Assembly (NCBI GenBank): GCA_017540585.1
Contig: JAFYAT010000043.1
Coordinates: 1 to 43,184, forward strand
DNA length: 43,184 bases
Direction of reading: 5' to 3'
DNA from: Bacteroidaceae bacterium
GTDB taxonomy: Bacteria > Bacteroidota > Bacteroidia > Bacteroidales > Bacteroidaceae
Made by a program: the position numbers and the translations under genes. The notes beneath the pieces were generated by a model that saw nothing but the letters and a program-made list of their open reading frames with translations, was not told where the DNA came from and ran no database searches. Within the stretch, counting starts at the first letter, position 1. Each line of letters starts with the position of its first letter. Below are positions 1,145-43,184 of this stretch, piece after piece.

Positions 1145-1837
1145 ATGGCAAAGAAAGCAAAAGACGTAAAGGAGAAATCTATTGAAGACCGTATCTGGGA
1201 TAGCGCGAATAAACTTCGTGGCAATCTCACCGCATCTGAATATCAGAACGTGGTGCTGGGTCTTGTATTCCTGAAATATATCAGCGACTGTTTTGAGAAA
1301 CGATATAATGAACTCGTAGAGGAGGGTGACGGCTTCGAGGAAGACCGTGACGAATATACGGCTGAGCATGTGTTCTGGGTTCCTCAGGATGCACGATGGA
1401 ATGTCATAGCCAGCAAGGCACACAGTCCTGAGATTGGACAGGTCATCGACCATGCTCTCGAAGAGATAGGCCGTGAGAATCCACGCTTGAAGAAGGTGAT
1501 GCCTAACAACTACTCCCGTCCTGAGATCGACAAGATACGTCTGGGCGAGGTCGTCGAGATATTCGACAATATGGATATGCACGCACAGGGTGAGGGTATT
1601 GACCTCTTCGGTCGTGTGTACGAATACTGCCTGCAGAATTTTGCCGCTGAGACACAGTCGTCAGGAGGTGAGTTCTATACGCCTTCGTGCATTGTCCGTA
1701 CCATAGTGGAGGTTCTGCAACCATTCGAGGGGCGTGTCTATGACCCTGCCTGTGGCTCGGGCGGTATGTTCGTGCAGAGTGCCAAGTTCGTGCAACAACA
1801 TCAAGGCAACCTCCGTAACGTGACCATCTATGGTTAG
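1145..1837 (+). CDS. hsdM: Type I DNA methyltransferase HsdM, N-terminal part (in-frame amber at 1835-1837)
   Basis: HsdM is the adenine methyltransferase subunit of a type I restriction enzyme and works with HsdS. This part (230 residues) has the HsdM N-terminal helical domain (about 10-140, including WDSANKLRGNLTASEYQNVV and FLKYISDCFE) and SAM motif I DPACGSGG near residue 200. The frame then meets TAG in the context IYG-stop-EFNANTWKMA. The family reads IYGQE here, so a single CAG-to-TAG change explains the stop. The same frame continues to 2722. The catalytic NPPF motif lies after the stop, so the truncated product cannot methylate. Full length would be 525 codons, normal for the family. 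Confidence 0.9.
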   Translation: MAKKAKDVKEKSIEDRIWDSANKLRGNLTASEYQNVVLGLVFLKYISDCFEKRYNELVEEGDGFEEDRDEYTAEHVFWVPQDARWNVIASKAHSPEIGQVIDHALEEIGRENPRLKKVMPNNYSRPEIDKIRLGEVVEIFDNMDMHAQGEGIDLFGRVYEYCLQNFAAETQSSGGEFYTPSCIVRTIVEVLQPFEGRVYDPACGSGGMFVQSAKFVQQHQGNLRNVTIYG

Positions 1838-1861
1838 GAGTTTAATGCCAACACGTGGAAG

Positions 1862-2722
1862 ATGGCACACATGAACCTTGCCATCCGTGGATTGGAGGCA
1901 GACCTTGGTGACAGTTGGGGCGACTCTTTCGGTGACGATAAGCACGCCACCAAGAAGTTCGACTTCATTATGGCTAATCCGCCATTCAACATGAAAGACT
2001 GGGGTGCATCCCGACTTGCCGATGATGTGCGCTGGAAATATGGTGTTCCACCAGAGGGCAATGCCAACTACGCATGGATTCAGCACATGGTGCATCATCT
2101 ATCGCCAACAGGCCGTATCGGATTGGTGCTTGCCAACGGTTCTCTTACTACCCAAAGCGGAGGTGAAGGTGATATTCGTCAGCGACTGATAGAGGCAGAC
2201 CTCGTAGAGGGTATTGTTGCCATGCCTAACCAGTTGTTCTACAACGTGTCAATCCCTGTATGCGTGTGGTTCTTCAACCGAAAGAAGAAGAACCCAGGCA
2301 AGGTGCTCTTTGTCGATGCCCGTGAGATGGGCATGATGGTTGACCGCACCCACCGTGAACTCAGCGATGACCTTGTGCGCTATGATTTCGTGAAGAAGGA
2401 AGACAAGCCGTGGGCAAAACTCTCTGCCGAGGAATGTGATGTGCAGCGCATCGCCAAGGCATTCCGCGACTATGAGGCAGGCACACTTGAGGATGTGAAG
2501 GGCTTCTGCAAGGTTGCCACGCTCGAAGATATTGCAGCCCAAGAGTTTGTTCTTACCCCCGGCCGATATGTGGGCATTGCCGACGAGGAAGAGGATGCAG
2601 AGCCATTTGAGGAGAAGATGCAGCGCCTCACCTCAGAACTCGGCGATCTCTTCGCCGAGAGCCATAGGCTTGAGGCAACAATACGTGAGAAACTGGCAGG
2701 TATTGGGTTTGAAGTGAAATGA
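1862..2722 (+). CDS. hsdM: HsdM, C-terminal part after the in-frame amber
   Basis: This is in the same frame as the part ending at 1837, with no intervening stop other than that TAG. It begins at an internal ATG (MAHMNLAIRGLEADLG), carries methyltransferase motif IV in FDFIMANPPFN (about residue 278 of the joined protein) and the conserved GRIGLVLANGSL and EGIVAMPNQLFYN segments. It ends with a helical tail (ALTSELGDLFAESHRLEATI-like) that contacts HsdS in the family. The preceding GGAAG abuts the ATG, so independent initiation looks weak. Its stop overlaps ATG 2719, but the better start of the next gene is 2737. Confidence 0.85.
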   Translation: MAHMNLAIRGLEADLGDSWGDSFGDDKHATKKFDFIMANPPFNMKDWGASRLADDVRWKYGVPPEGNANYAWIQHMVHHLSPTGRIGLVLANGSLTTQSGGEGDIRQRLIEADLVEGIVAMPNQLFYNVSIPVCVWFFNRKKKNPGKVLFVDAREMGMMVDRTHRELSDDLVRYDFVKKEDKPWAKLSAEECDVQRIAKAFRDYEAGTLEDVKGFCKVATLEDIAAQEFVLTPGRYVGIADEEEDAEPFEEKMQRLTSELGDLFAESHRLEATIREKLAGIGFEVK

Positions 2723-3573: not shown

Positions 3574-4775
3574 GTGAGTGGAAAGAATATAGGCTTGGAG
3601 AGGTTTGTACCGAACTGAGCGATGGATTGCATAAAGCACCAAATTTCAAAAAAAATGGAGACTATATTTTTGTCAATGCCAAGAATATAGTTAATGGTTT
3701 TATCATTGATAATGACCCAACCAAAAAGTCAACGCATGAAGAATATTTGAAATATGCATCCCCTCTTAACGACACTTCAATATTATATTCCATTGATGGC
3801 ACAATAGGCAATATTGCACTTTACAGAGGCGAAAAGTGCATTCTCGGTAAAGGCGCATGTTACATGAATCCAAATCCGCAGATATTAGATAGAATGTTCT
3901 TGTATTATGAACTCCAGTCACCACGCTTCAAATCATATATATACAAAATGTCTACGGGTTCGACGATTAAACATATTTCATTGAAAACTATGCGTGGATA
4001 CGATTTCTCATTCCCATCGTTAGAGAGACAGCGCCGTATCGCTTCTATCCTCTCTTCTCTCGATGATAAAATTGCTGTTAATCGTCGTATCTGTGAGAAT
4101 TTGGAGGCACAGGCTCAGGCACTCTTCAAAAATTGGTTTGTTGACTTCGCTCCTTTCAAAGATGGAAAATTCGTAGAGTCAGAACTCGGAATGATTCCTG
4201 AAGGGTGGAGAGTGGGAAGGCTTAACGAGGTAATGGATATTTTGCCTGGAGGTACCCCAAAGACAAGTAATCCTGAATATTGGGAAAATGGCACTATTCC
4301 ATTCTTTAGTCCGAAAGATGTGAAAGGTGTTTATTGTTTCGATACGGAGAGCTATATTACCCAAGTAGGTCTTGATAATTGTAGCAGCAAACTATATGAA
4401 AAAGATACAATTTTTATAACTTGTAGAGGAACGGTGGGCAAAGTAGTACTTGCTGCTTCTCCAATGGCTATGAATCAGTCAAATTACGCTTTAAGAGGTA
4501 AAGAAGGAATCTCTCAATATTATTTGTATTATGTAATAGTTTCTCTGGTTAGTCAGCTAAAAAAATTAGCCAATGGTTCAACATTTGCAGCTATCACAAC
4601 AAGAGATTTTTCTGTCAAAATAGCGACGCCTCCACTGAATGAAATAGAAAAGTTTCATTGTATTTGCGAGTCTTTATTTGAGCAGATTTATACTATGGGC
4701 TTAGAAAATCTCCGTCTTGCCGCCCTTCGTGACACACTTCTTCCGAAACTAATGTCAGGAGAGATGAAGGTATAG
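3570..4775 (+). CDS. hsdS: Type I restriction-modification specificity subunit HsdS
   Basis: HsdS sets the DNA target for the HsdM/HsdR complex. The 401-residue protein has the usual two-fold layout: TRD1 (about 1-150, starting MSEWKEYRLGEVC), a central conserved helix (ERQRRIASILSSLDDKIAVN, about 150-170, then LEAQAQALFKNWFVDF), TRD2 (about 205-370, from MIPEGWRVGRLNEVMD) and the C-terminal conserved helix (LRDTLLPKLMSGEM). Both halves are complete, so it should recognise a bipartite site. It ends in TAG, which shows TAG acts as a real stop next to the hsd genes. GGAGG at 3556-3560 precedes the start. No second hsdS or invertase is nearby, so shufflon-type variation is not indicated. Confidence 0.95.
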   Translation: MSEWKEYRLGEVCTELSDGLHKAPNFKKNGDYIFVNAKNIVNGFIIDNDPTKKSTHEEYLKYASPLNDTSILYSIDGTIGNIALYRGEKCILGKGACYMNPNPQILDRMFLYYELQSPRFKSYIYKMSTGSTIKHISLKTMRGYDFSFPSLERQRRIASILSSLDDKIAVNRRICENLEAQAQALFKNWFVDFAPFKDGKFVESELGMIPEGWRVGRLNEVMDILPGGTPKTSNPEYWENGTIPFFSPKDVKGVYCFDTESYITQVGLDNCSSKLYEKDTIFITCRGTVGKVVLAASPMAMNQSNYALRGKEGISQYYLYYVIVSLVSQLKKLANGSTFAAITTRDFSVKIATPPLNEIEKFHCICESLFEQIYTMGLENLRLAALRDTLLPKLMSGEMKV

Positions 4776-4850
4776 GACTTGAGAAGACTGAGAGGAATCA
4801 AATAGGACTTGAGGGAATTTAAGAGGATATGAGAGGATTATATTAACAAT
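4776..4850. repeat. Word array C (GGACTTGAGAGGA type), upstream arm of FHB1
   Basis: Degenerate purine-rich words (GACTTGAG, GAGAGGA, TTAAGAGGA) begin immediately after the hsdS stop and run to about 14 nt before the four-helix-bundle gene. The reverse complements (TCCTCT, CAAGTCCTCT) appear in the array after the gene. Confidence 0.6.
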
Positions 4851-4863
4851 AAAATAACAGACT

Positions 4864-5517
4864 ATGAATAATATAGAGCGGGTATTGCTTGAAGGAGCAA
4901 ACTGGAAGGAACTACGGTTCTATCAGAAGTCGGAGGCGCTGTATCAGATGACATTCGTTTTCTGCGAGCGTTTTCTGCCTAAGCATGGTGACCGCACGGT
5001 TGACCAGATGGTGCAGGCAGCACGTTCGGGCAAGCAGAACATCATAGAAGGCTCGGAAGATGGCAAGACATCTACGGAGATGGAACTGAAACTGCTCAAT
5101 GTGGCTCGCTCGAGTATTCATGAACTGAGGGAAGACTTCAAGGACTATCTGCTGTCGCGCAAGTTGACGCTATGGAACCAGCAACATTCCCGTTATCAGG
5201 GTATGCACGATTTCACGAAAGCTCACAACAGGCTTGCGGACTATGAACCTTTCTTCCTGAAATGGAGCGACGAGGAGATGGCAAACATCGGCTATACCTT
5301 GTGCTGTCAGATTGACGTAATGATGAACGGCTATCTGGCGACTCTCGAAGACCGTTTCCGTAAGGAGGGTGGCATGAAGGAGCGCATGTATCGTGTGCGC
5401 ACTGGCTACAGGGCAGAGCAGGACCGCAAGATGGCAGATATGGAAGCCACCATAAAGTGGCAGGAACAAAGAATAAAAGAACTCGAAGCGGAAGTGGAGA
5501 GGATGAAGAGGAGATAG
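4864..5517 (+). CDS. Four-helix-bundle protein with suffix domain (FHB1)
   Basis: A 217-residue protein. Residues 15-100 (LRFYQKSEALYQMTFVFCER, VQAARSGKQNIIEGSE, LKLLNVARSSIHELREDF) match the S23/IVP-like four-helix bundle, which is related to Avd of diversity-generating retroelements. It continues with the longer suffix type (about 100-165) and ends in a coiled coil (KWQEQRIKELEAEVERMKRR). The family is basic and may bind nucleic acid; the cellular role is unknown. It separates hsdS from hsdR and is enclosed by purine and pyrimidine word arrays. The downstream array begins inside its last codons (AGAGGA from 5498), so the array helps encode the C-terminus. No Shine-Dalgarno is seen. Confidence 0.85.
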   Translation: MNNIERVLLEGANWKELRFYQKSEALYQMTFVFCERFLPKHGDRTVDQMVQAARSGKQNIIEGSEDGKTSTEMELKLLNVARSSIHELREDFKDYLLSRKLTLWNQQHSRYQGMHDFTKAHNRLADYEPFFLKWSDEEMANIGYTLCCQIDVMMNGYLATLEDRFRKEGGMKERMYRVRTGYRAEQDRKMADMEATIKWQEQRIKELEAEVERMKRR

Positions 5518-5665
5518 GAAGAGGAAGCGAGAGGAAGAGGACACAAGAGGACACAAGAGGAATCCTCTGAAATCCTATCAAGTCCTCTAAGGTCCTCTCT
5601 GGTCCTCGGGAGTCCTCAGAGGTCATCTCCAGTCCTCTAAGTTCCTCTCCCCTCCTCTAAAAAAA
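5498..5665. repeat. Word array D (AGAGGA then TCCTCT), downstream arm of FHB1
   Basis: At least five AGAGGA words between 5520 and 5565 are followed by at least six TCCTCT words up to about 5660, so the array folds on itself and also complements array C. It overlaps the 3' end of the FHB1 gene and its TAG stop, and ends about 20 nt before hsdR. Confidence 0.65.
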
Positions 5666-23738: not shown

Positions 23739-23919
23739 GAGTTTTTAAGTTCGTGAGTTTTTAAGTTTTTAAGTTCTTGGGTTGTTAAGTTTTTAGGTTC
23801 TTAAGTTTTTGAGTTTTTTAGTTCTTGTGAAGCATGACATTCAAACATGCAACCATATAACTTTAAAACTTTGTCTTTAAAACATAAAACTTACAAACTT
23901 AAAAACTCACAAACTTATG
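23739..23919. repeat. Word-symmetric array E (GAGTTTTTAAGTT / AACTTAAAAACTC)
   Basis: The left arm (23739-23827) repeats GAGTTTTTAAGTT-like words about ten times. The right arm (about 23858-23917) repeats AAAACTTACAAACTTAAAA-like words. A 30-nt unique centre (near GAAGCATGACATTCAAACATG) separates them. No gene lies between. It abuts the oadB stop. Confidence 0.65.
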
Positions 23920-23922
23920 ATA

Positions 23923-25164
23923 CTATCCGAGGAATGAGATAAGCACACCTGCTGCTACGGCTGAACCGATAACGCCTGCTACGTTTGAAGACATACAGTA
24001 GTTGAGGACGTGGTTCTTTGGGTCGTACTCAGTAGAGATGAGGTTACATACACGGCTTGCCATAGGAACGGCAGAGAGTCCTGTTGCACCAATCAGTGGA
24101 TTTATCTTCTTCTTTGCAAAGACGTTCCATATCTTCACCATGCAGATACCTGATGCGATAGAGAGACCGAATGCGAAGAATCCTCCTACAACGATACCGA
24201 TTGTTGTCCAGTTGAGGAATGCATCAACTGTCATTGTTGCTCCTACACAGAGTCCGAGGAATACTGTACATGTGTTCATGACAGAGTTAGAGATAGTGTC
24301 GAACAAGCGGCTTGTGTCTGAACCAATCTCCTTGAGGAGGTTACCGAACATGAGCATACCGATGAGTCCTACTGCTGATGGCACGAGGAGTGCAACGATT
24401 GTAGTAACAGCGATAGGGAAGATAATCTTGATGACCTTCTCGTTTTTGATCTTGTTTGAAGGTGGGAAGAGCTTGTCCTGCTCCTTCATGTTGATCATGA
24501 GTTCCTTCTTTGTACAGAGCAACTTAACAACGAGAGGAATGATTACTGGTACGAGTGCCATGTAAGAGTAAGCTGCGATGGCGATAGGTGCAAGGAGGTG
24601 TGGAGCCAACTTGATAGTAGTATAGATGGCTGTTGGACCATCAGCACCACCAATGATACCAAGTGAAGCTGCTTCCTTGAGGTCGAACTGACCTGAACCT
24701 ACTGCGCAAAGGAGTACGGCAAAGATACCGAGCTGTGCTGCAGCACCGAAGATGGCAAGCTTGAGGTTACGGAGCATAGGACCGAAGTCTGTGAGTGCAC
24801 CTACACCCATGAAGATTACTGGTGGGAGGAATCCTGTCTTGATGAGCATGTAGTAAAGGAAGTTCATCAATCCAAGTTCATGAGCGACATCGTGAATTGG
24901 CATTTCCCACACGTTATAGTCCTTTCCATTGTAGTGGATGAGACCAGTCTCGTCTGCCTGAAGCACACCCATGTCGCCTCCTGGGAAGTTAGCGATGAGT
25001 ACACCGAATGCAATAGGCACGAGAAGCAGTGGCTCGAAGTGCTTGACAATACCGAGGTACAAGAGTACGAAGGCAAGCAAGTACATTATTATATATGTAC
25101 CATTAGCAGCGATGATGTCGCTGAACGCTGTCATCTGGTACAAGTTGTTTAAAATTTCTTCCAT
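23923..25164 (-). CDS. oadB: Sodium-translocating decarboxylase beta subunit
   Basis: 413 residues, a polytopic inner-membrane protein of the OadB/GcdB/MmdB family that couples decarboxylation of the carboxybiotin carrier to sodium export. Family landmarks are GDMGVLQADE, FLPPVIFMGVGALTDFGPML, ASLGIIGGADGPTAIYTT and the end segment GLSAVPMASRV. It should follow the alpha gene directly; here a four-helix-bundle gene with word-array arms is wedged between (25165-25682). It has no own promoter that I can see. Confidence 0.93.
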   Translation of the reverse strand: MEEILNNLYQMTAFSDIIAANGTYIIMYLLAFVLLYLGIVKHFEPLLLVPIAFGVLIANFPGGDMGVLQADETGLIHYNGKDYNVWEMPIHDVAHELGLMNFLYYMLIKTGFLPPVIFMGVGALTDFGPMLRNLKLAIFGAAAQLGIFAVLLCAVGSGQFDLKEAASLGIIGGADGPTAIYTTIKLAPHLLAPIAIAAYSYMALVPVIIPLVVKLLCTKKELMINMKEQDKLFPPSNKIKNEKVIKIIFPIAVTTIVALLVPSAVGLIGMLMFGNLLKEIGSDTSRLFDTISNSVMNTCTVFLGLCVGATMTVDAFLNWTTIGIVVGGFFAFGLSIASGICMVKIWNVFAKKKINPLIGATGLSAVPMASRVCNLISTEYDPKNHVLNYCMSSNVAGVIGSAVAAGVLISFLG

Positions 25165-25165
25165 A

Positions 25166-25230
25166 AATTTTAAAAGTTAAAAATTAACAATTAAAAGTTA
25201 AAAGTTGAGTTAGAAGTTTTTAAGTTGTTC
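25166..25230. repeat. Word array F-left (AAAAGTTAAAA), downstream arm of FHB2
   Basis: Repeats AAAAGTTA, AAAATTAA and AGTTAAAA directly next to the oadB start codon. Complementary to the words at 25611-25678. On the FHB2 coding strand this is the downstream arm with reverse-complement words (TAACTTTTAACTT). Confidence 0.65.
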
Positions 25231-25232
25231 AG

Positions 25233-25607
25233 TTATAAGTCTGTTCCGTGCTCTTTCCTGTTTACTTGTGACGTACGAATAATAGATGAGAGAATTGCAA
25301 TCAACTCATCCACATCTGCCTTCAATGATACATACATTTTTTCGTCAATGAATTCGTTGTCATGCAAGAGTCTTATCCAGTATCTACTTTCACTGGCTTC
25401 TTTAAGAGCTATCTGGTGCTTGTTTATAAAGTCTGCTTGGCTTTGTGCATATACAGCCTCTGCAACATTGGCACCAATGGATGTGCCCGAGCGAAACAGT
25501 TGTTTGGATATGATTCGCTCTTGCTTTTTACTACTTAGGAACTTCTCCAATTTTATTATTCTATTGGCGAATAAGTAGGATTTTGCTGAGATTATGCTTT
25601 CTGCCAT
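25233..25607 (-). CDS. Four-helix-bundle protein, S23/IVP type (FHB2)
   Basis: 124 residues with the typical family core: IIKLEKFLSSKKQERIISKQ, LFRSGTSIGANVAEAVYAQS, FINKHQIALKEASESRYWI. Homologs were first seen in 23S rRNA intervening sequences; Avd of diversity-generating retroelements shares the fold. It sits on the coding strand between oadA and oadB, where no metabolic role is expected, and is bordered on both sides by complementary word arrays. Short (124 residues versus 217 for FHB1) and without the suffix domain. Confidence 0.9.
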   Translation of the reverse strand: MAESIISAKSYLFANRIIKLEKFLSSKKQERIISKQLFRSGTSIGANVAEAVYAQSQADFINKHQIALKEASESRYWIRLLHDNEFIDEKMYVSLKADVDELIAILSSIIRTSQVNRKEHGTDL

Positions 25608-25610
25608 ATA

Positions 25611-25678
25611 GAACTTAAAGCTAAAGCACTTTAGAACTAAACTTATAATTTTTAACTCTTAACTTTTAACTTGAAGCT
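25611..25678. repeat. Word array F-right (TTTTTAACTCTTAACTTTTAAC), upstream arm of FHB2
   Basis: Reverse-complement words of F-left (for example TTAACTTTTAACTT) between the FHB2 start and the oadA stop. Close to the oadA stop is an extra AAGCTTGC-gttaa-GCAAGCTT hairpin (about 25674-25694) that overlaps the oadA stop. Confidence 0.65.
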
Positions 25679-25682
25679 TGCG

Positions 25683-27524
25683 TTAAGCAAGCTTCATGAT
25701 TGGGTCGTCCTCTTCAACTGAGTCGCCTGAGCTGACGAGGATGGCAGTGATTGTACCTGCCTTGTCTGCACGGATGGCATTGAATGTCTTCATTGCCTCA
25801 ATGTAGCCGAGGGTGTCACCTGCCTGTACTGCGTCGCCAACCTTCTTTGGTGTCTCTGAGTTGTCCTTAACGAGGTAGAATTTACCCTCAAGTGGTGCGA
25901 GGATGTCCTCACCTTCACCTGCAGGAGCTGCTGCTGGTGCTGCACCTGCTGCTGCAGCTGGTGCTGGAGCATCGCCGTATGCAATCTCTACCTTATAGTT
26001 TACACCATTTACATTGACAGTAACTGACTTAGGGCCTTCTGCGCCACCTGCTGGTGCATTAGCCTCTGCCTTACGCTTTGCAAGGTCTGCTTCGAAGTCA
26101 GCCTTAGCCTTACCTGACTTGTAAGCCTCGTACTGTCCTGGGTGCATTGAGTATTCGAAGAGTTCCTCGTCGTCCTCGCCGAGTTCCCATCCCTTCTCCT
26201 GCATCTTCTTCTTGTACTCCTCAAGGTCATCAGGGAAGTAAGACTGTGGATCGTTTGTCTCGAATACCTTGCCTTCCTTCTTTGCAAGTTCAACGATTTC
26301 TGGTGCAACAGGACCAGGGAGCTGACCTGCCTTGCCGAGAATCATGTCCCAAATAGTGTCGGCAATCATTGACCAACGCTCCTTGCCCTTCTCCATCTGG
26401 ATGACATTCATGAGGGCGAGGTTCTTGACATACTGAGAGAATGGAGTTACGAGACATGGGTAACCAACCTTTGGCCATACATAAGCAACCTCATCGAAGA
26501 GCTTGATGAGAAGCTCGTCAGTAGTAAGCTCTGGCTGGTTGTTCTTTACCTTCCACTTGTTGAGTGACTTGAGGTTGTCCTCAAGGTCAGTCATGAGTGA
26601 ACCCATCATACCGCCAGGGAGTCCTGGCTTAACGAGAAGTGAGTTGTTGATATGGTTGAGCTTTGGAATGTAGTAGCCGAGGAAGTCATCGCACATCTCC
26701 TGAATCTGAGTACGTACCTCCATGTAAGCTGCCATGTTGATTTCCTTTACCTTGAAACCTGCATCCTTCAACATCTCCTGTACAGCGATGATGTCTGCGT
26801 GTCCTGTACCCCAAGAGAGTGGAGACATACCTGTATCTACATAGTCACATCCTGCGTTACATACTTCGAGGATTGAAGCCATGTTGAAACCAGGGCCTGC
26901 GTGTGAGTGATACTGGATTACGATATCTTCCTTGTAAGCCTTGATACCCTCGACAATCTTGCCAAGTGATACTGGACGGCCGATACCTGCCATATCCTTG
27001 AGACAGATTTCGTCAGCACCTGCATCGATGAATGTCTTAGCAAGGTTTACATAGTATTCAACTGTGTGGATAGGAGAGTGAGTGATACAGAGTGAAGCCT
27101 GAGCAATCATGCCTGCTTCCTTTGCATACTGGATTGATGGTATTACGTTGCGTGGGTCGTTGAGACCACAGAATATACGAGTGATGTCTGTGCCCTGAGC
27201 CTTCTTTACCTTGTAGAAGAGTTTACGGAGGTCCTTAGGACATGGGCTCATGCGGAGACCGTTGAGTGCACGGTCGAGCATGTGTGTCTGTATGCCTGCC
27301 TCATGGAATGGTTTAGTCCATGCACGTACAGACTTGTTTGGGTTCTCGCCGTAGAGAAGGTTTACCTGCTCGAAACCTCCACCGTTAGTCTCTACACGGT
27401 CGAAACAACCCATCTTGATGATTGCTGGTGCTACTTTCACGAGTTGGTCAACACGTGGCTGATACTTTCCGGCACTCTGCCACATATCACGGAAGACCAA
27501 TGAGAATTTTACTTCTTTTGCCAT
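25683..27524 (-). CDS. oadA: Oxaloacetate decarboxylase-type alpha subunit (carboxyltransferase plus biotin carrier)
   Basis: 613 residues. The carboxyltransferase barrel has FRDMWQSAGKYQPR at the N-terminus, the metal ligands in QYHSHAGPGF (HxH) and the probable carboxylated Lys in EICLKDMAGIGRP. The pattern RDMWQS replaces the RDAHQS usual in OadA and pyruvate carboxylase; this variant is, as far as I know, common in Bacteroidales. A linker rich in Ala and Pro (about 530-545) leads to a biotinyl domain with GYIEAMKTFNAI (Lys in EAMK). It moves CO2 from oxaloacetate to biotin; OadB then releases it while pumping sodium. Confidence 0.9.
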   Translation of the reverse strand: MAKEVKFSLVFRDMWQSAGKYQPRVDQLVKVAPAIIKMGCFDRVETNGGGFEQVNLLYGENPNKSVRAWTKPFHEAGIQTHMLDRALNGLRMSPCPKDLRKLFYKVKKAQGTDITRIFCGLNDPRNVIPSIQYAKEAGMIAQASLCITHSPIHTVEYYVNLAKTFIDAGADEICLKDMAGIGRPVSLGKIVEGIKAYKEDIVIQYHSHAGPGFNMASILEVCNAGCDYVDTGMSPLSWGTGHADIIAVQEMLKDAGFKVKEINMAAYMEVRTQIQEMCDDFLGYYIPKLNHINNSLLVKPGLPGGMMGSLMTDLEDNLKSLNKWKVKNNQPELTTDELLIKLFDEVAYVWPKVGYPCLVTPFSQYVKNLALMNVIQMEKGKERWSMIADTIWDMILGKAGQLPGPVAPEIVELAKKEGKVFETNDPQSYFPDDLEEYKKKMQEKGWELGEDDEELFEYSMHPGQYEAYKSGKAKADFEADLAKRKAEANAPAGGAEGPKSVTVNVNGVNYKVEIAYGDAPAPAAAAGAAPAAAPAGEGEDILAPLEGKFYLVKDNSETPKKVGDAVQAGDTLGYIEAMKTFNAIRADKAGTITAILVSSGDSVEEDDPIMKLA

Positions 27525-30323: not shown

Positions 30324-30577
30324 TTGAGTTTTTAAGTTTTTAAGTTTGTGAGTTTTTAAGTTTGTGAGTTTTTAGGTTTGTGAGTTTTTAGGTTTTTTAG
30401 TTCTCGCTGGTGTGAGTTTTTTGTTTTTTGAGTTTTTAAGTTTATGCGTGAAAACGTTTCTGAGTTATTTGGCTCGTGATTATTTATATGTTCCAAGCAT
30501 GTGTCCTTTCCGTGAAAACAAAAAAACTTACAAACTTACGAACTTAAAAACTTACAAACTTACGAACTTACAAAACC
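30324..30577. repeat. Word-symmetric array G (GAGTTTTTAAGTTTGT / AACTTACAAACTTACG)
   Basis: The left arm (30324-30441) has about ten GAGTTTTTAAGTT-type words and the right arm (30522-30577) has AACTTACAAACTTACGAAC words. The 80-nt centre is unique. It uses almost the same words as array E. No gene within. It fills the folB-dnaA gap up to the dnaA terminator. Confidence 0.65.
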
Positions 30578-42732: not shown

Positions 42733-42805
42733 GCGGAAATAGCTCAGTTGGTAGAGCACAACCTTGCCAAGGTTGGGGTCGCGAGTTCGAGTCTCGTTTT
42801 CCGCT
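42733..42805 (+). tRNA. tRNA-Gly (GCC)
   Basis: 73 nt. The acceptor GCGGAAA pairs with TTTCCGC; the anticodon arm CAACC-TTGCCAA-GGTTG reads GCC; the T arm contains GTTCGAGTC. CCA is not encoded. Confidence 0.95.
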
Positions 42806-42825
42806 CACTTTTTGGAACGTACAAT

Positions 42826-42898
42826 GCGGAAATAGCTCAGTTGGTAGAGCACAACCTTGCCAAGGTTGGGGTCGCGAGTTCGAGTCTCGTTTTCCGCT
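42826..42898 (+). tRNA. tRNA-Gly (GCC), second identical copy
   Basis: Identical to the tRNA at 42733-42805, with the preceding ACAAT/ACAAT spacer bases also similar, indicating a recent tandem duplication. Confidence 0.95.
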
Positions 42899-42930
42899 CA
42901 AGACTTCTTAGGAAGTGTGATTCACGCAAG

Positions 42931-43011
42931 GCCCATGTGGCGGAATGGTAGACGCGCTCGTTTCAGGTGCGAGTGTTGAGAGACGTGCAAGTTCGAGTCT
43001 TGTCGTGGGCA
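42931..43011 (+). tRNA. tRNA-Leu (CAG)
   Basis: 81 nt. The acceptor GCCCATG pairs with CGTGGGC (one G-T). The anticodon loop TTCAGGT gives CAG. A short variable arm (TGTTGAGAGACGT) marks a class II tRNA. Confidence 0.92.
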
Positions 43012-43031
43012 CAGTAAAATAAACCAGTAAT

Positions 43032-43112
43032 GGAGAGGTGGCGGAATGGTAGACGCGCTACTTTGAGGGGTAGTGGGCTAAGCCCGTGTGAGTTCGAGTC
43101 TCATCCTCTTCA
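43032..43112 (+). tRNA. tRNA-Leu (GAG)
   Basis: 81 nt. The acceptor GGAGAGG pairs with CCTCTTC (one G-T). The anticodon loop TTGAGGG gives GAG. The long variable arm GGGCTAAGCCC marks a class II tRNA. Confidence 0.92.
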
Positions 43113-43131
43113 CTTACGGTGGAAACATAAT

Positions 43132-43184
43132 GCGGAAATAGCTCAGTTGGTAGAGCACAACCTTGCCAAGGTTGGGGTCGCGAG
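43132..43184 (+). tRNA. tRNA-Gly (GCC), third copy, cut by the window end
   Basis: The first 53 nt are identical to the two other tRNA-Gly copies; the T arm and 3' acceptor lie beyond the window. Confidence 0.9.

What the first reader, a model, noticed from the sequence alone, without database searches (positions are those of the whole stretch)
25165..25682. Second four-helix-bundle gene with arms wedged between oadA and oadB
The oad genes normally form a compact operon. Here 518 bp containing FHB2 separate alpha and beta. The gene is flanked by AAAAGTTA words on one side and TAACTTTT words on the other. Read on the coding strand, the polarity of arms matches FHB1 (G/A-rich words upstream, complements downstream), although the words differ. 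The arms touch the oadB start and nearly the oadA stop, as expected of an insertion that selects or tolerates gene boundaries and keeps the operon orientation.
Basis: partly seen in the sequence, partly recalled or inferred. Interest (0 to 1): 0.74.

Follow-up and report, generated by a model that had tools for sequence, protein, structure and literature searches.

The report
Heptamer-armed four-helix-bundle mobile element
A small gene wedged into a gut bacterium's sodium-pump operon looks like the protein-coding member of a large family of short mobile elements whose ends carry about five copies of a seven-letter word, a design that recurs in distant bacteria and may explain long-puzzling seven-base repeats.

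Summary
oadA and oadB are split by 518 bp: a 124-aa PF05635/TIGR02436 four-helix-bundle (FHB) gene between complementary arms. Of 30 genus junctions examined, 18 are compact (gap 16 bp or less) and one, this genome, has this FHB; the sister species (oadB 94% nt identity) has a different hairpin there.

It is one case of a system. Of 99 FHB loci in the genus, 72 have strong inverted arms. Arms are arrays of short words, mostly 7 nt (108 of 133 measured arms; those have median length 32 nt, five cores). A separate scan of 104 FHB flanks from Bacteroidota, cyanobacterial and treponemal plasmids, a Selenomonadales MAG and viral contigs found 40 arrays, all period 7 (shuffles: 2). Words follow protein relatedness at unrelated sites. 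No genome holds two armed FHBs over 56% identical, yet the FHB2 word recurs: 189 hits (about 100 arms) in this genome, 2 for a reversed control. PF05635 proteins are reported as pentamers, matching five cores.

Best reading: a REPIN- or MITE-like dispersed family with an FHB protein, not a transposase, as word reader. Insertion, arrays and covariation are shown; binding, stoichiometry and mobilisation are inferred. RNA-level (IVS-like) action is the main rival.

The parts
25165..25682 (-). whole insert between the oadA stop and the oadB start (518 bp)
   Evidence: 18 of 30 genus junctions are compact (16 bp or less)
25635..25672 (-). upstream arm: array of AAGTTAA-type heptamers, 33 nt, 4.7 units
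25233..25607 (-). FHB2, 124-aa four-helix-bundle protein (TIGR02436 1.3e-28; PF05635 3.9e-24; PDB 2rld 1.9e-29)
25174..25211 (-). downstream arm, complementary array; measured array 37 nt, 5.3 units
25672..25696 (-). 10-bp perfect stem with the oadA stop codon in its loop, beside the upstream arm
   Evidence: same arrangement in L012, L016, L017, L029, L031
25683..27524 (-). oadA-like biotin-dependent decarboxylase alpha subunit (upstream neighbour)
23923..25164 (-). oadB, sodium-pump decarboxylase beta subunit (downstream neighbour)
   Evidence: TIGR01109 8.7e-124

Best explanation
FHB2 is the protein-coding member of a family of short dispersed elements. Each element ends in an array of about five copies of a 7-nt word, the two ends in inverted orientation. 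The encoded protein belongs to the 23S-rRNA-intervening-sequence protein family (PF05635), reported as a pentamer of four-helix bundles. I propose that one pentamer reads one array, roughly one word core per subunit, as DNA, that pentamers on both ends bring the ends together, and that host or trans-acting enzymes then copy the element into gene junctions. Copies without the gene (paired or solo arms) are spread in trans, as REPINs are thought to be by a single-copy RAYT. In the window one such element sits between oadA and oadB and is read through by the operon. SHOWN: an extra segment at a junction that is usually compact; sharply sized arrays; words that follow protein relatedness; one FHB per specificity per genome with many gene-less word copies; purifying selection on the protein. 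INFERRED: binding to the words, five-to-five stoichiometry, DNA rather than RNA as ligand, and any role in mobility.
For: Junction turnover: between G000 and G020 (oadB 93.7% nt identity) three of four compared operon junctions differ: oadA-oadB FHB against GC-rich hairpin, pta-ackA FHB against GxxExxY element, rnfC-rnfD FHB against ORF-less hairpin; araD-araA is shared. Arms: 72 of 99 genus FHBs with strong inverted arms. Array size: 108 period-7 arms, median 32 nt, IQR 30-33; 84 of 133 arms of all periods span 4-5 units. Generality: 40 of 104 flanks in another set have arrays, 40 of 40 with period 7 when 5-12 were allowed, against 2 of 104 shuffles. Covariation: protein identity against arm 6-mer similarity at non-homologous sites, r = 0.41 over 3,010 pairs of 79 elements, best of 2,000 permutations 0.10. 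Single copy: highest within-genome identity between armed FHBs 55.4%. Many word copies: FHB2 word 189 hits in G000 against 2 for the reversed pattern; the two genomes whose FHB has this word rank first and second of 45 (189, 106); for GTGAAAA, 11 genomes with such an FHB have median 46 hits against 11 in 34 others, p = 0.0005, or 0.002 with two borderline genomes added. Symmetry: both arms depart equally from the word, 0.066 and 0.065 per nt in 48 elements. Selection: median dN/dS 0.08, maximum 0.49, 30 pairs. Pentamer: 2rld holds 5 chains of this sequence; the title cited in PMC10053308 for Xcc0516 names five four-helix bundles.
Against: FHB has no known catalytic site, so the mobilising enzyme is missing. 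No target duplication was shown. Word-rich genomes without a detected matching FHB exist: G020 and G033 with 76 hits each, G042 with 57 for the FHB2 word (drafts of 80-87% completeness). In the 374 kb sample only 3 inverted pairs were found among 11 arms of the FHB2 word, one pair being FHB2 itself; 5 arms were solo at that stringency. 27 of 99 genus FHBs lack strong arms, only 9 of 30 wider-phylum loci have strong inverted arms, and only 10 of 60 of their flanks an array. Twelve period-8 arms average 3.4 units, not 4.6, and outside the genus some arrays are much longer (up to 37.6 units). Arms pair in register better than unit-shuffled arms (676 against 627, sd 11, 25 elements), which fits a hairpin, though the way arms were cut favours this. 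The oadA-end stem with compensatory changes hints at RNA-level selection.
Confidence: 0.6

Rival explanations
1. RNA-level element, like a 23S rRNA intervening sequence moved into mRNA: the arms pair in the transcript, the stem is cut (for example by RNase III), oadA and oadB mRNAs are separated, and FHB binds the RNA stem or its own message.
For: Insert RNA folds at z = -5.2. In the genus 95 of 95 resolved upstream genes and 87 of 90 fully resolved loci are codirectional with the FHB. In-register excess. At oadA, the stem round the stop codon is kept with two double changes and a G.U pair between G000 and L012.
Against: Among arm mismatches, those still pairing on the sense RNA (G.U) are no commoner than those pairing only on the antisense: 77 against 69, p = 0.56, with 208 transversions. 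Both arms are equally constrained. In L283 and L288 the FHB is on the strand opposite to its neighbours. No Rfam family matches the insert.
Confidence: 0.22
2. Host regulator with a regulon: FHB proteins are chromosomal regulators and the word arrays are their operator or mRNA sites, kept for gene control; no mobility.
For: Strong purifying selection; arrays lie between genes, 0 of 52 hairpins inside genes and 48 in scored junctions; one FHB per specificity per genome.
Against: Sites are not conserved even between sister species; different word families occupy the same junction in different species; words change with FHB lineage; presence of the FHB2 word jumps from 189 to 0 hits within the genus.
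Confidence: 0.1
3. Slippage product: the arrays are ordinary tandem repeats grown by replication slippage in intergenic DNA and the FHB is incidental.
For: Heptamer repeats are reported as over-represented in many bacterial genomes and slippage has been proposed (passages of PMC4679880 and PMC4692102); some arrays outside the genus are greatly expanded.
Against: Set array length, inverted pairing around the gene, word-protein covariation; the reversed word is nearly absent in G000 (2 hits).
Confidence: 0.05

Closest known systems
23S rRNA intervening sequences (IVS) with an S23/IVP ORF
   Same: Protein family PF05635, an ORF between inverted repeats, sporadic distribution; mobility was proposed long ago (passages of PMC4990558)
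   Different: Here the element sits between protein genes, not in 23S rRNA; arms are five-core word arrays; gene-less word copies are numerous
REPIN-RAYT systems
   Same: Inverted doublets of a short motif, many copies, one distinct partner gene per motif and genome (passages of PMC3116915)
   Different: The partner is not a Y1/HUH transposase but a four-helix-bundle protein; the motif is a tandem array; the gene itself is armed
MITEs, for example BrickBuilt of Porphyromonas gingivalis
   Same: Short intergenic elements with inverted ends, some with internal tandem repeats (passages of PMC4596501)
   Different: No transposase-type terminal repeats or target duplication shown here; the tandem repeats are the ends
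Heptanucleotide repeats of Nostoc, Xanthomonas, Beggiatoaceae and Geobacter
   Same: Tandem 7-nt words between genes, sometimes in inverted pairs (passages of PMC4692102, PMC4679880, PMC2700814)
   Different: No FHB/S23/intervening-sequence link in those papers (term finds); the words themselves differ
Avd of diversity-generating retroelements
   Same: Related fold and family; 2GSC and Avd are compared in PMC10053308 (passages)
   Different: FHB2's immediate neighbours are oadA and oadB, not a reverse transcriptase

Membership tests
23S rRNA intervening sequence | lies inside a 23S rRNA gene | tested here: not met
   neighbours are oadA-like and oadB genes; Rfam finds only tRNAs in the window
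23S rRNA intervening sequence | ORF of the IVP/S23 family | tested here: met
   PF05635 3.9e-24, TIGR02436 1.3e-28
23S rRNA intervening sequence | inverted repeats at the ends | tested here: met
23S rRNA intervening sequence | excised from the transcript (RNase III) | not testable with these tools
   needs RNA data
REPIN-RAYT | partner is a Y1/HUH transposase | tested here: not met
   FHB2 matches only the four-helix-bundle family in Pfam
REPIN-RAYT | many copies of an inverted doublet of the partner's motif | tested here: inconclusive
   many copies: 189 hits in G000; in the 374 kb sample 11 arms, 3 inverted pairs, 5 solo
REPIN-RAYT | partner gene single copy per motif and genome | tested here: met
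   no within-genome pair of armed FHBs above 55.4% identity among 79 elements of 34 genomes
MITE | target-site duplication | tested here: inconclusive
   junctions too short and A/T-rich to define
MITE | derived from a transposon with a transposase | not tested
   no transposase sought genome-wide
DGR Avd | next to a DGR reverse transcriptase and template/variable repeats | tested here: not met
   adjacent genes are oadA-like and oadB; the rest of the genome was not searched for reverse transcriptases

The most novel reading that the evidence does not exclude
A ring of five four-helix bundles reads five 7-nt words, one per subunit, at each end of a widespread class of short mobile elements. 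The 23S intervening sequences, gene-junction hairpins and the long-unexplained heptanucleotide repeats of several phyla would then be products of one protein family, and a second class with a PD-(D/E)XK protein (GxxExxY) uses the same architecture.
Probability: 0.4. Interest if true: 0.9.

Novelty: new variant of a known kind. Interest (0 to 1): 0.78.

Why it matters
PF05635 proteins occur in 235 of 296 sampled genomes and 116 of 140 genera of the phylum, and the papers whose passages I read give them no function outside rRNA or retroelements. Linking them to word arrays of set length gives a concrete, quickly testable function (does a pentamer bind five words?), offers an explanation for tandem heptamers described in several phyla, and shows that operon junctions in gut Bacteroidota turn over between sister species, which affects how operons are annotated and expressed.

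Tried and rejected
G.U asymmetry as a test of selection on the sense RNA: null, 77 against 69.

A stem at the upstream gene's end as a general insertion signature: 4 of 64 with 7 bp or more against 3% of shuffles; special to oadA.

A general preference for codirectional junctions: 37 of 48 hairpins, against 67% of net intergenic bases (p = 0.17) and 77% of junctions (p = 1.0); rejected. Hairpins are dense per base in tight codirectional junctions (10 in 408 bp with net gap 20 bp or less, 12 in 27,998 bp above 200 bp) but roughly even per junction (10 of 52; 12 of 59). Net gap is measured after subtracting the hairpin, gene calls are my own, and some of the sampled contigs were chosen because they carry FHB or query hits.

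Target duplication: a TTAA or stop-codon repeat looked possible by eye, but could not be separated from A/T-rich words.

Reversed-pattern control for GTGAAAA: not informative, since the reversed pattern is the same word. For GTTAAAA the reversed pattern is itself frequent in some genomes (for example G036, 24 hits against 85).

Literature: eight searches gave no listing that links PF05635 or GxxExxY to word arrays; subscription journals and preprints are mostly not held. In no case did I read a whole paper: PMC4990558, PMC8934634, PMC10053308, PMC10910872, PMC4679880, PMC2700814, PMC4692102, PMC4596501 and PMC3116915 were seen as passages; others only as listings.

Full report
WHAT IS THERE. 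FHB2 is a 124-aa member of TIGR02436 and PF05635; its only hit in the PDB at E 0.01 or better is 2rld, with five chains. Gene names other than oadA/oadB, FHB and GxxExxY (rnfC, rnfD, pta, ackA, araD, araA, kdgK, kdgA, secY, adk, hsd genes) are recalled from the sequences and were not tested by a family search.

THE SITE. oadB was found in 44 of 45 genus genomes. In the 30 loci fetched, the oadA-oadB gap is 16 bp or less in 18, 37-45 bp in 2 and 112-518 bp in 10. The ten are: FHB2 (this genome), ORF-less hairpins with GTGAAAA words (L012, L017, L029, L031), a degenerate relative (L016), ORF-less hairpins with ATTTAC words (L015, L024) and GC-rich hairpins (L009, which is the sister species, and L014). 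At pta-ackA 7 of 30 loci hold an FHB and 4 of 30 a GxxExxY gene; at rnfC-rnfD 1 of 30 holds an FHB; both junctions also show compact states, ORF-less hairpins and GC-rich hairpins. Some pta-ackA junctions hold what looks like a single array without partner (L141, L149, L150, L153, L155).

THE CLASS IN THE GENUS. The own genome has 7 PF05635 matches. The five short ones lie between gene pairs that look like parts of one pathway, each with its own word. 36 of 45 genus genomes have a match; I examined 99 loci. 72 of 99 have strong inverted arms at the scoring (68 at the stricter scoring used). Neighbours: 87 FHBs lie between two codirectional genes, 3 have an opposed downstream gene, 9 have one side unresolved; all 95 resolved upstream genes are codirectional. 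The median distance from the upstream stop to the arm is -1 nt in the 64 of 79 elements where it could be measured.

THE ARRAYS. Among 133 measured arms (periods 7-10 allowed, slight preference for 7), 108 have period 7 with a median of 32 nt (IQR 30-33), that is 4.57 units or five cores; 73 of the 108 span 29-34 nt. Nine arms of period 10 and four of period 9 span about 40 nt (4.0 and 4.4 units), which fits a set number of units; twelve of period 8 span 27 nt (3.4 units), which does not. Of all 133, 84 span 4-5 units, 19 less than 3.5 and 6 at least 6. In another set of 52 FHB loci (30 Bacteroidota, 3 named MAG contigs, 6 plasmids, 13 viral contigs; 104 flanks) a detector allowing periods 5-12 found 40 arrays, all with period 7, and 2 in shuffles; by source 10 of 60, 3 of 6, 11 of 12 and 16 of 26. 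Some of these are much longer than five units.

PROTEIN AND WORD GO TOGETHER. Over 79 armed elements, protein identity and arm 6-mer similarity correlate at non-homologous sites (3,010 pairs, r = 0.41; maximum of 2,000 label permutations 0.10). Site homology was judged from 450-nt flanks, so a few homologous sites may have been missed. No two armed FHBs of one genome exceed 55.4% identity, while word copies are many. The FHB2 pattern has 189 hits in G000 and 2 for its reverse; 106 in G014, the other genome whose FHB has this word; 76 in G020 and G033 and 57 in G042 without a detected FHB of that word; 0 in G023. Hits overlap: in the 374,132-base sample 20 hits are 11 arms, 3 inverted pairs (one is FHB2 itself) and 5 solo arms, so about 100 arms are expected genome-wide. 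The ATGAAGA word of the pta-ackA FHB has 25 hits in G000 and 48 in G020, 0 in controls. GTGAAAA counts are higher in genomes with such an FHB (medians 46 and 11; p = 0.0005, or 0.002 with two borderline genomes). These tests ignore relatedness of genomes and draft incompleteness. ORF-less GTGAAAA hairpins at oadA-oadB share inner motifs with the FHB-bearing elements at pta-ackA (AATCTAAGT and its complement, read), as deletion derivatives would.

DNA OR RNA. Against RNA pairing as the constraint: no excess of G.U over its mirror class (77 and 69), and equal constraint on both arms. For RNA: codirectionality in the genus, a good fold, in-register pairing above unit shuffles (676 against 627, sd 11; biased by how arms were cut), and the stem around the oadA stop codon, present in L008, L012, L017, L029, L031 and weaker in L016, where G000 and L012 differ by two compensatory double changes and one G.U change. 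Outside the genus, L283 (between cas2 and cas1) and L288 have the FHB on the opposite strand. I favour DNA as the main ligand but give RNA real weight.

A SECOND CLASS. GxxExxY proteins (TIGR04256, PF13366 PD-(D/E)XK superfamily) occur in 35 of 45 genus genomes. 15 of 31 loci examined have inverted arms scoring at least 8 above the best of 30 shuffles. Arms like those of the G020 GxxExxY element (L220) recur ORF-less at several places in the G000 sample.

SPREAD. 235 of 296 sampled genomes and 116 of 140 genera of the phylum, 0 of 14 control genomes. Period-7 arrays flank FHBs in Nostoc, Euhalothece, Treponema saccharophilum and Bernardetia plasmids, in a MAG titled Selenomonadales (between what look like secY and adk) and in viral contigs.

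VERDICT. The finding is real and part of something larger. Membership in 23S IVS fails on location; membership in REPIN-RAYT fails on the transposase; it works most like the latter. Mechanism of movement is unknown.

Noticed in passing
window 4757-4839, 4864-5517, 5571-5653: FHB1 (four-helix bundle plus TIGR04258 suffix) between hsdS- and hsdR-like genes, with AGGAC-type arms of period about 10 and more than five cores; the suffix-type FHBs L007 and L123-L126 showed no strong arms.
   Followed up: partly
window 23746-23917 and 30328-30576: ORF-less hairpins with GTTTTTAA words (period 8), the word of the rnfC-rnfD FHB of this genome; the first lies just after the oadB stop.
   Followed up: partly
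window 25672-25696; L012, L016, L017, L029, L031: Stem round the oadA stop codon formed by an inverted copy of the gene end beside the arm, with compensatory changes; absent from compact junctions.
   Followed up: partly
L128, L134, L135, L139, L220: GxxExxY (PD-(D/E)XK superfamily) genes in armed elements at pta-ackA, the same kind of place as FHBs.
   Followed up: partly
L009, L014, L133, L140, L156, L193:4840-5040: GC-rich hairpins (CCCCTAACCCCC...GGGGG type) at the same junctions; another dispersed family without ORF.
   Followed up: no
L268: FHB with GGAGTTA words between what look like secY and adk in a MAG titled Selenomonadales.
   Followed up: partly
L283: FHB between cas2 and cas1 on a Nostoc plasmid, on the strand opposite to both.
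   Followed up: no
window 1145-2722: An hsdM-like reading frame looks split by an in-frame stop near 1835-1837 (name recalled).
   Followed up: no
window 42733-43184: Tandem tRNA genes at the contig end: two tRNA-Gly, then Leu-like ones, one called with a four-base anticodon by ARAGORN.
   Followed up: no
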